From Catenulispora sp. (GTDB lineage: Bacteria; Actinomycetota; Actinomycetes; Streptomycetales; Catenulisporaceae): a DNA stretch of 48,995 nt. The translations under genes and the position numbers were made by a program. The stretch covers positions 1 to 48,995 of the forward strand of contig JABFWL010000020.1 of assembly GCA_013362315.1 (NCBI GenBank). Direction: 5' to 3'. Positions 9,992 to 19,548 of the stretch are shown piece after piece. The notes beneath the pieces were generated by a model that was not told the DNA's origin, made no database searches, and was given only the letters and a program-made list of their open reading frames with translations. The first letter of the stretch is position 1; every line of letters begins with the position of its first letter.

Positions 9992-11713
9992 GTGAACGAC
10001 ACCGACACCGATACCGACACCACCGCCACCGACACCACCGCCACCGTCCCGGCCGATGCGGGACCGGCGTTCGCCGAGCGCAGTGCGGACGTCTGCCCCA
10101 TCACGCTGCCGCGCCGGTTCAGCCCCGAGCAGGCGGCGCGCACCGCCCTCATCGCAGACCACCGGCTCAGCTACGCGGAGCTGGAGACCGAGGTCGACCG
10201 CGTCGCGGCCGGGCTGCTGCGGGCCGGAGCCGGCCCGGGCGACCGGGTGGCCATCTGGATGGACAAGCAGCCGCGGTACGCGGTGGCCATCCTGGGCGCA
10301 CTGCGTGCCCGCTGCGCCTATCTCCCGCTCGACGCGGCGCAGCCCGCCCAGCGGGTGCAGGCCGTACTCGCCGACGCCGAACCCGTGGTGCTGTGCGTAG
10401 ACCGCCACCACCTGCCCTTCGTGGAGACGCTGCGCCTGCCCGCCTCGGTACGGGTGGTCGCGGTCGCCGACGACGTCTCGGGACCTGCGCTCGGCCGGGC
10501 TGAGCTACTGGGCCCTGAGGTACTGGGCCGAGCCGAGGTACTGGGCTGGGAGGACTTCGCGCCCGCGGCGGGTCACCGCACCGGCACCGCGGAACCGGAC
10601 CCCGACTCGATCGCGGCCGTGCTGTACACCTCGGGTTCCACCGGAGTGCCCAAGGGCGTCCAGATCAGCCATCGCAACCTGGGCGTGTTCATCGGATGGG
10701 CCCGTCGGGAACTCGACGTCGGGCCGGACGACGTGTTCGCCGGCCACGCCTCGTTCAACTTCGACCTGAGCACGTTCGACCTGTTCACCGCGCTGTCCGT
10801 CGGAGCCTCGCTCTGGATCGTCCCGGACGCGCAGACCAAGGACATGGCCGCTCTCGCGGCGGGCATCGTCCGGTACCGGGTCAGCGTCTGGTACTCGGTG
10901 CCCTCGGCCCTGCACCTGCTCATCCGCTCGGGTGCGTTGACCCGGGACGCCGCGGCCTCGCTGCGCCACGTCCTGTTCGCCGGCGAGGTGTTCCCCATCC
11001 CGCAACTGCGCGCGCTGGCCAGGGTGCTGCCCCCGGCCGCGACGCTCTACAACCTGTACGGGCCCACCGAGACCAATGTGTGCACCTATCACCGCGTCGG
11101 CCCCGAGGATCTGCGTGCCGACGAGCCGCTCCCGATCGGGCTGCCGCTTCCCGGCGCCCGCGTCTCACTGCGCGCCGAGGACGGCAGCGAGGTCACTGCG
11201 CCCGGCGAGTTGGGCGAACTGATCGTCTCCGGCCCGTGTGTGACGCCCGGCTACTGGCGCCGGCCTCGGGAGTCGGCCGCGGCCGGCCACCCCGCGAGCC
11301 ACGCGACCGGAGACCTGGTCAGCCTCGACGACCACGGCCGGCTGATCTACCGGGGGCGCAAGGACCGGATGGTCAAGCTCTCCGGCTACCGTGTCGAGCT
11401 CGGCGAGGTCGAGGCCGCGGCGCTTCGCCACCGGGGCATCGCCACGGCCGCCGCGGTGGTGGCGGCCGATCCCGGCGGCGGCGCGCACATCGTGCTGCAC
11501 TACACGGTCCACTCCGGGGCGGCGCCGCTCGGACTGCTCGATCTCAAGCGGCACTGCGCGCGCCACCTGCCCGCCTACATGGTGCCCCGCGCGGCCAGAT
11601 GCGTGGCGGCACTGCCCTACAACGCGAACGGAAAGGTCGACTACCAGCGGCTGGCTGCCGGGGGCCCGGAGTCGCCCGCGGCACCGCCCCCTGACCCCCG
11701 GAGGTTGCCGTGA
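9992..11713 (+). CDS. redM: L-prolyl-AMP ligase (adenylation enzyme), RedM-like
   Basis: A 573-residue stand-alone adenylation enzyme that activates an amino acid with ATP and loads it onto a carrier protein, by context L-proline onto RedO. Core motifs are visible in order: LYTSGSTGVPKGV (phosphate loop), YGPTETNVCTYH, the TGDLVS aspartate segment, GRKDRMVKLSGYRVELGEVE (hinge) and the C-terminal catalytic Lys in NANGKVDY. The N terminus before residue 25 is an Asp-Thr/Thr-Ala repeat, probably disordered. The GTG at 9992 starts three bases after the redN stop, and the gene ends in a GTGA overlap with redL. Proline specificity is inferred from the pathway; I did not extract the pocket residues. 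Confidence 0.9.
   Translation: MNDTDTDTDTTATDTTATVPADAGPAFAERSADVCPITLPRRFSPEQAARTALIADHRLSYAELETEVDRVAAGLLRAGAGPGDRVAIWMDKQPRYAVAILGALRARCAYLPLDAAQPAQRVQAVLADAEPVVLCVDRHHLPFVETLRLPASVRVVAVADDVSGPALGRAELLGPEVLGRAEVLGWEDFAPAAGHRTGTAEPDPDSIAAVLYTSGSTGVPKGVQISHRNLGVFIGWARRELDVGPDDVFAGHASFNFDLSTFDLFTALSVGASLWIVPDAQTKDMAALAAGIVRYRVSVWYSVPSALHLLIRSGALTRDAAASLRHVLFAGEVFPIPQLRALARVLPPAATLYNLYGPTETNVCTYHRVGPEDLRADEPLPIGLPLPGARVSLRAEDGSEVTAPGELGELIVSGPCVTPGYWRRPRESAAAGHPASHATGDLVSLDDHGRLIYRGRKDRMVKLSGYRVELGEVEAAALRHRGIATAAAVVAADPGGGAHIVLHYTVHSGAAPLGLLDLKRHCARHLPAYMVPRAARCVAALPYNANGKVDYQRLAAGGPESPAAPPPDPRRLP

Positions 11714-19548: not shown

What the first reader, a model, noticed from the sequence alone, without database searches (positions are those of the whole stretch)
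11710..19548. RedL megasynthase fused to a RedK-like reductase
After the oxoamine synthase domain (PLP Lys2097) the same uninterrupted frame continues through a short linker into a complete extended SDR with GASGFIGGH and Tyr2415-x3-Lys2419. In the S. coelicolor red cluster, redL and redK are separate neighbouring genes. The fusion would tether the reductase to the enzyme releasing 4-keto-2-alkylpyrroline, an unstable intermediate, and so channel it. It also confirms that the two act in sequence.
Basis: partly seen in the sequence, partly recalled or inferred. Interest (0 to 1): 0.75.

Follow-up and report, generated by a model that had tools for sequence, protein, structure and literature searches.

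The report
Known RedL–RedK fusion in prodiginine cluster
Two enzymes that make one building block of a red bacterial pigment are joined in a single protein here; this is real but ordinary, because most related bacteria have the same joined protein, it has been reported before, and the textbook separate version is probably the later exception.

Summary
Window 11710-19548 encodes one 2,612-aa protein, FAAL–(ACP-like)–ACP–KS–AT–ACP–oxoamine synthase (OAS)–extended SDR. Three other Catenulispora species have the same fusion, so it is not a sequencing error.

Among 38 clusters found through RedH with both domains visible, 23 are fused (3 Catenulispora, 7 Actinomadura, 13 Streptomyces) and 15 split (all Streptomycetaceae). 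A second sample, drawn with the SDR domain, gave 11 fused and 5 split. The fusion was published in 2021 for Streptomyces sp. MBK6, which makes undecylprodigiosin and metacycloprodigiosin (PMC8102152). That RedL makes 4-keto-2-undecylpyrroline and RedK reduces and dehydrates it was also known.

What I add concerns direction. Fused and split forms lie on two sides of one tree branch. On a rooted RedH tree the split forms are one Streptomyces clade nested among fused ones. Split junctions mostly read GTG-TGA-NNN-ATG, and most fused genes carry an in-frame ATG at that position. The S. coelicolor layout is therefore probably a derived fission by a stop codon; rooting support is moderate. Channelling remains untested.

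The parts
11710..19548 (+). redLK: single gene for the RedL megasynthase with a C-terminal RedK SDR
   Evidence: one open frame, Pfam and NCBIfam domains
11710..13449 (+). FAAL (fatty acyl-AMP ligase) domain, aa 1-580
   Evidence: AMP-binding 221 bits and FAAL NCBIfam models
13825..14025 (+). ACP, aa 706-772 (Ser in LGLDS); preceded by an ACP-like segment with LGLDY
   Evidence: PP-binding; motif search
14110..15204 (+). KS domain, aa 801-1165
   Evidence: ketoacyl-synt N and C
15664..16596 (+). AT domain, aa 1319-1629
   Evidence: Acyl_transf_1
16900..16932 (+). Second ACP, core motif only (GFDS at aa 1736)
   Evidence: motif; not called by Pfam
17267..18423 (+). Oxoamine synthase domain, aa 1853-2238, PLP Lys2097
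   Evidence: Aminotran_1_2; 73-80% identical to the RedL OAS of other prodiginine clusters
18424..18540 (+). OAS-SDR linker without Met or stop
18541..19545 (+). RedK-type extended SDR domain, aa 2278-2612, GASGFIGGH, Tyr2415, Lys2419
   Evidence: Epimerase E 2e-34; orthologous to split RedK
19548..20375 (+). RedJ-like thioesterase, start overlapping the redLK stop
   Evidence: Thioesterase domain, overlap
21402..24116 (+). RedH ligase that uses the 2-alkylpyrrole
   Evidence: NF052632 1604 bits against cut-off 1350
7907..9988 (+). RedN-like oxoamine synthase (MBC branch)
9992..11713 (+). RedM-like adenylation protein, overlapping the redLK start
   Evidence: AA-adenyl domain

Best explanation
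The gene encodes RedLK. The RedL part loads a fatty acid released by RedJ (FAAL, ACP), extends it once with malonate (KS-AT-ACP), and condenses it with glycine by the PLP-dependent OAS domain, which releases a 4-keto-2-alkylpyrroline. The C-terminal SDR then reduces and dehydrates it to the 2-alkylpyrrole that RedH joins to MBC. Shown here: one uninterrupted, conserved frame; intact catalytic residues; purifying selection; no second close RedK found; and the fused form as the commoner form in actinobacterial prodiginine clusters. Inferred: the chemistry, from the S. coelicolor pathway, and any channelling benefit. Most likely history: the fused protein is ancestral to the sampled Actinomadura, Catenulispora and Streptomyces clusters, and one Streptomyces clade (represented here by S. 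coelicoflavus; S. coelicolor presumed) split it by a stop codon just before an in-frame Met, leaving two closely spaced, probably translationally coupled genes. The confidence given is for the identity and role; for the fission history it is about 0.7.
For: Domains and residues. Congeners with the same frame. 23 fused against 15 split in RedH-anchored loci; 11 against 5 in an independent SDR-anchored sample. OAS+SDR tree: fused and split separated by a single branch, 100/99. RedH tree rooted on proteobacterial RedH/PigC: split is one clade (96-98/92-94) inside fused lineages, and the AU test rejects fused monophyly (p 0.021, 30-row set). Junctions: split CTG-GTG-TGA-NNN-ATG against fused Streptomyces CTG-GGA-CGA-GCC-ATG and Actinomadura CTG-GTG-GAC-GCC-ATG. 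A divergent cluster (L086) also has a degenerate SDR fused to RedL (33.7 bits against at most 2.9 bits in 200 shuffles). Pathway order from PMC12654105 and PMC11188435. MBK6, with a RedL-RedK fusion, makes undecylprodigiosin and metacycloprodigiosin (PMC8102152).
Against: The OAS-only tree with distant outgroups does not resolve the root and would allow the split state as ancestral. In the full RedL tree the outgroup branch is very long. AU p 0.021 is moderate and assumes RedH and RedL travelled together. The conserved ATG in fused genes could instead be a relic start codon from a fusion. No biochemical data for this protein. The window's genome is only 82% complete.
Confidence: 0.9

Rival explanations
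1. True fusion rather than fission: redL and redK were separate in the ancestor and were joined once, by loss of the redL stop codon, in the ancestor of all fused clusters; the in-frame ATG in most fused genes is the relic redK start.
For: The fused and split forms need only one change; an ATG sits at the redK start position in 22 of 26 fused genes; the OAS-only root is unresolved.
Against: RedH tree nests the split clade among fused lineages and the AU test rejects fused monophyly (p 0.021); an SDR remnant is fused to RedL in the divergent L086 cluster. The Met also fits as a hydrophobic residue of the last OAS helix (inference).
Confidence: 0.27
2. The fusion channels the unstable 4-keto-2-alkylpyrroline from OAS to SDR and was selected for that.
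For: The two steps are consecutive (PMC12654105) and the fusion has been kept in several genera.
Against: Linkers vary widely in length and sequence, from about 20 to about 100 residues; split clusters persist and diversify within one clade; no kinetic data.
Confidence: 0.35
3. The fused SDR is a decayed or repurposed domain, with the reduction done by a separate RedK elsewhere.
For: L086 shows that decay of the fused SDR can happen; the genome is 82% complete.
Against: Catalytic residues intact and invariant, dN/dS 0.22-0.31; no other SDR above about 37% identity in the genome; near-complete congeners have only the fused copy at E<=1e-60.
Confidence: 0.03
4. Assembly or sequencing artefact joining two genes.
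For: Draft genome of 770 contigs.
Against: The same frame and linker in three independently sequenced Catenulispora species.
Confidence: 0.005

Closest known systems
RedL-RedK fusion of Streptomyces sp. MBK6 (Baral et al. 2021, PMC8102152); relative S. griseoaurantiacus JCM 4763 (L017)
   Same: RedL and RedK in one ORF in a colinear red cluster; that strain makes undecylprodigiosin and metacycloprodigiosin
   Different: Different genus; the linker here has no internal Met and is a different sequence; OAS 78% and SDR 72% identical to L017
S. coelicolor RedL and RedK (separate genes; represented here by S. coelicoflavus L006)
   Same: Same domains and reactions; redK follows redL directly
   Different: A stop codon (GTG TGA TCC ATG) separates them in S. 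coelicoflavus
L086 prodiginine-type cluster (G382, another actinobacterial family)
   Same: RedO-N-M-L-J-I-H order with an SDR remnant fused to RedL
   Different: SDR degenerate: no Tyr-x3-Lys and no Pfam SDR match

Membership tests
RedL (prodiginine 2-alkylpyrrole assembly) | FAAL-ACP-KS-AT-ACP-OAS domain order | tested here: met
   the ACP after the AT by motif only
RedL (prodiginine 2-alkylpyrrole assembly) | Lies in a red-type cluster with RedH, RedN, RedM | tested here: met
   RedH NCBIfam above cut-off; RedP, R, J, I, G, X, W, Y by Pfam
RedL (prodiginine 2-alkylpyrrole assembly) | Makes 4-keto-2-alkylpyrroline | not testable with these tools
   needs an enzyme assay
RedK (4-keto-2-alkylpyrroline reductase/dehydratase) | Extended SDR with GxxGxxG and Tyr-x3-Lys, orthologous to redK next to redL | tested here: met
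   64-71% identical to stand-alone RedK of split Streptomyces clusters; catalytic residues invariant in 41/41
RedK (4-keto-2-alkylpyrroline reductase/dehydratase) | Converts 4-keto-2-alkylpyrroline to 2-alkylpyrrole | not testable with these tools
   needs an enzyme assay; function taken from the S. coelicolor pathway
RedL-RedK fusion (as in Streptomyces sp. MBK6) | Both in one uninterrupted frame | tested here: met
   also three congeners
RedL-RedK fusion (as in Streptomyces sp. MBK6) | No separate close RedK in the genome | tested here: inconclusive
   Second-best match 32% identity, 56 bits, but genome 82% complete; near-complete congeners G006 and G007 have a single, fused match
RedL-RedK fusion (as in Streptomyces sp. 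MBK6) | Intermediate channelled between the domains | not testable with these tools
   kinetic assay needed; not shown for MBK6 either

The most novel reading that the evidence does not exclude
The textbook S. coelicolor arrangement of separate redL and redK is a derived fission of an ancestral RedLK megasynthase, caused in one Streptomyces clade by a stop codon placed just before an existing in-frame Met, with close spacing (probable translational coupling) preserved.
Probability: 0.7. Interest if true: 0.35.

Novelty: new member of a known kind. Interest (0 to 1): 0.2.

Why it matters
It shows that the model S. coelicolor red cluster is not the typical layout: most actinobacterial prodiginine clusters sampled use one RedLK protein. 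Natural fused and split pairs that differ by little more than one stop codon are a clean test bed for whether joining a megasynthase to its tailoring reductase changes flux or leakage of an unstable intermediate. As a single finding in this window it is ordinary.

Tried and rejected
Artefact or frameshift: rejected (same frame in congeners, purifying selection). The idea that the fusion is unusual: rejected (23 of 38 and 11 of 16 fused). Many independent fusions: not needed on the OAS+SDR tree, where one change suffices. Rooting by the OAS domain alone with distant PKS-OAS outgroups did not resolve direction; the full RedL tree with L086 as outgroup had a very long branch and its AU test did not finish. 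One order-level genome search failed and was replaced. Structure prediction was not run, because domain identity was already clear by sequence. S. coelicolor itself was not among the returned loci; S. coelicoflavus stood in for it.

Full report
Observation. The frame 11710-19548 (+) is open for 2,612 codons. Pfam finds, in order, AMP-binding, PP-binding, ketosynthase, acyltransferase, class I/II aminotransferase (oxoamine synthase) and NAD-dependent epimerase. The RedJ start codon overlaps the RedLK stop.

Context. The surrounding genes form a full prodiginine cluster. RedH passes the NCBIfam undecylprodigiosin-ligase cut-off (1604 against 1350 bits). RedN, RedM, KAS III (RedP), KAS II (RedR), an ACP (RedQ), thioesterase (RedJ), methyltransferase (RedI), Rieske protein (RedG), a double-KS protein (RedX), acyl-CoA dehydrogenase (RedW) and a HapK/RedY protein are present. 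A carrier protein (RedO) at 7644-7910 is assigned by position and by 38% identity to the corresponding gene of L086; Pfam found nothing there. The window's genome is a Catenulispora relative: its RedH is 92-93% identical to those of three named Catenulispora species.

How common is the fusion? RedH was used as the anchor, so that the sample did not depend on RedL architecture. Of 56 loci, 38 show both the RedL-type OAS and a RedK-type SDR: 23 in one frame (3 of 3 Catenulispora, 7 of 7 Actinomadura, 13 Streptomyces) and 15 as separate genes (14 Streptomyces and one unnamed Streptomycetaceae). A second sample, anchored on the SDR in 294 genomes of the order, gave 11 fused and 5 separate among the 16 close matches; a seventeenth, distant match (G195, 40%) has no OAS or RedH in the 20 kb fetched.

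Literature. PMC8102152 (Baral et al. 2021) states that the cluster of Streptomyces sp. MBK6 differs from S. [quoted passage not shown] The order RedL then RedK is stated in PMC12654105 and PMC11188435. The fusion is not new, and the order did not need confirming. I also recall a 2008 redK-mutant study in S. coelicolor, but I did not find it in the library and did not rely on it.

Direction of change. On an OAS+SDR tree (linker excluded) fused and split genes lie on the two sides of a single branch, support 100/99. Rooting decides the direction. The OAS domain with distant PKS-OAS outgroups does not resolve it. The RedH tree rooted on proteobacterial RedH/PigC puts all 15 split clusters in one Streptomyces clade nested within fused lineages (a 30-row set with a better model agrees), and an AU test rejects a single clade of all fused clusters (p 0.021). 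A divergent cluster of another family (L086: RedO-N-M-L-J-I-H) has a degenerate SDR remnant in the same frame as its RedL (33.7 bits with a RedK profile against at most 2.9 bits for shuffles, no Tyr-x3-Lys), which also favours an old fusion. I therefore favour fission, at about 0.7.

Junction anatomy. Split junctions read CTG-GTG-TGA-NNN-ATG in 8 of 15 clusters, in frame with redL. In 6 the same GTG-TGA is followed by a start 2, 4 or 5 nt later in another frame, and in L008 the two genes overlap. Fused genes outside Catenulispora (22 of 26 in the tree, counting one near-identical pair twice; L069 and L070) keep an in-frame ATG at the same place: GGA-CGA-GCC-ATG in several Streptomyces, GTG-GAC-GCC-ATG in most Actinomadura. 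CGA to TGA is a single transition. The four Catenulispora genes have no ATG there and a different linker, so the window's own junction has drifted furthest.

Function. The fused SDR keeps the catalytic residues, invariant in 41 of 41 domains, and is under purifying selection against its congeners (dN/dS 0.22-0.31). The closest solved sequences are extended SDRs such as 3wj7 and 4id9, and for the OAS serine palmitoyltransferase and KBL/AONS-type enzymes. No second close RedK was found in the incomplete genome, and near-complete congeners have only the fused one. The mechanism given is the S. coelicolor pathway applied to this protein. Channelling is a hypothesis; the great variation in linker length and sequence gives it no particular support.

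Verdict. Real, correctly described and biologically sensible, but a common and already reported architecture. The mildly new point is that the model organism's split layout is probably the derived one.

Noticed in passing
window ~13500-13765 (aa ~600-685 of RedLK): An ACP-like segment before the true ACP has Tyr in place of the phosphopantetheine Ser (LGLDY). The same Tyr, or His, recurs in many other RedL proteins, fused and split, so a conserved inactive carrier-like domain may have a structural role.
   Followed up: partly
L086 (G382:C1:1512000-1531900): Divergent actinobacterial prodiginine-type cluster whose RedL carries a degenerate SDR with no Tyr-x3-Lys; its genome has no other close RedK. 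It might release an unreduced or hydroxylated pyrroline-derived prodiginine.
   Followed up: partly
L030, L032, L034, L039 (Nocardia): Nocardia clusters have RedH and RedN (57-66% identity) but no RedL-type OAS or RedK within the 10 kb flanks; the second pyrrole may be made by another route, or its genes lie further away.
   Followed up: no
L105 9885-11000 (-) (G195): Stand-alone SDR with 40% identity to RedK near another PKS in a Streptomycetaceae genome; no RedH or OAS in the 20 kb fetched.
   Followed up: no
L072-L085 (various actinobacteria): OAS proteins, several of them PKS-OAS, with 44-54% identity to the RedL OAS but no fused RedK-type SDR; possible uncharacterised aminoketone or alkylpyrroline assembly lines.
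   Followed up: no
window 24001-25335: Rieske protein (RedG-like), which suggests a cyclised prodiginine product in this Catenulispora relative.
   Followed up: no
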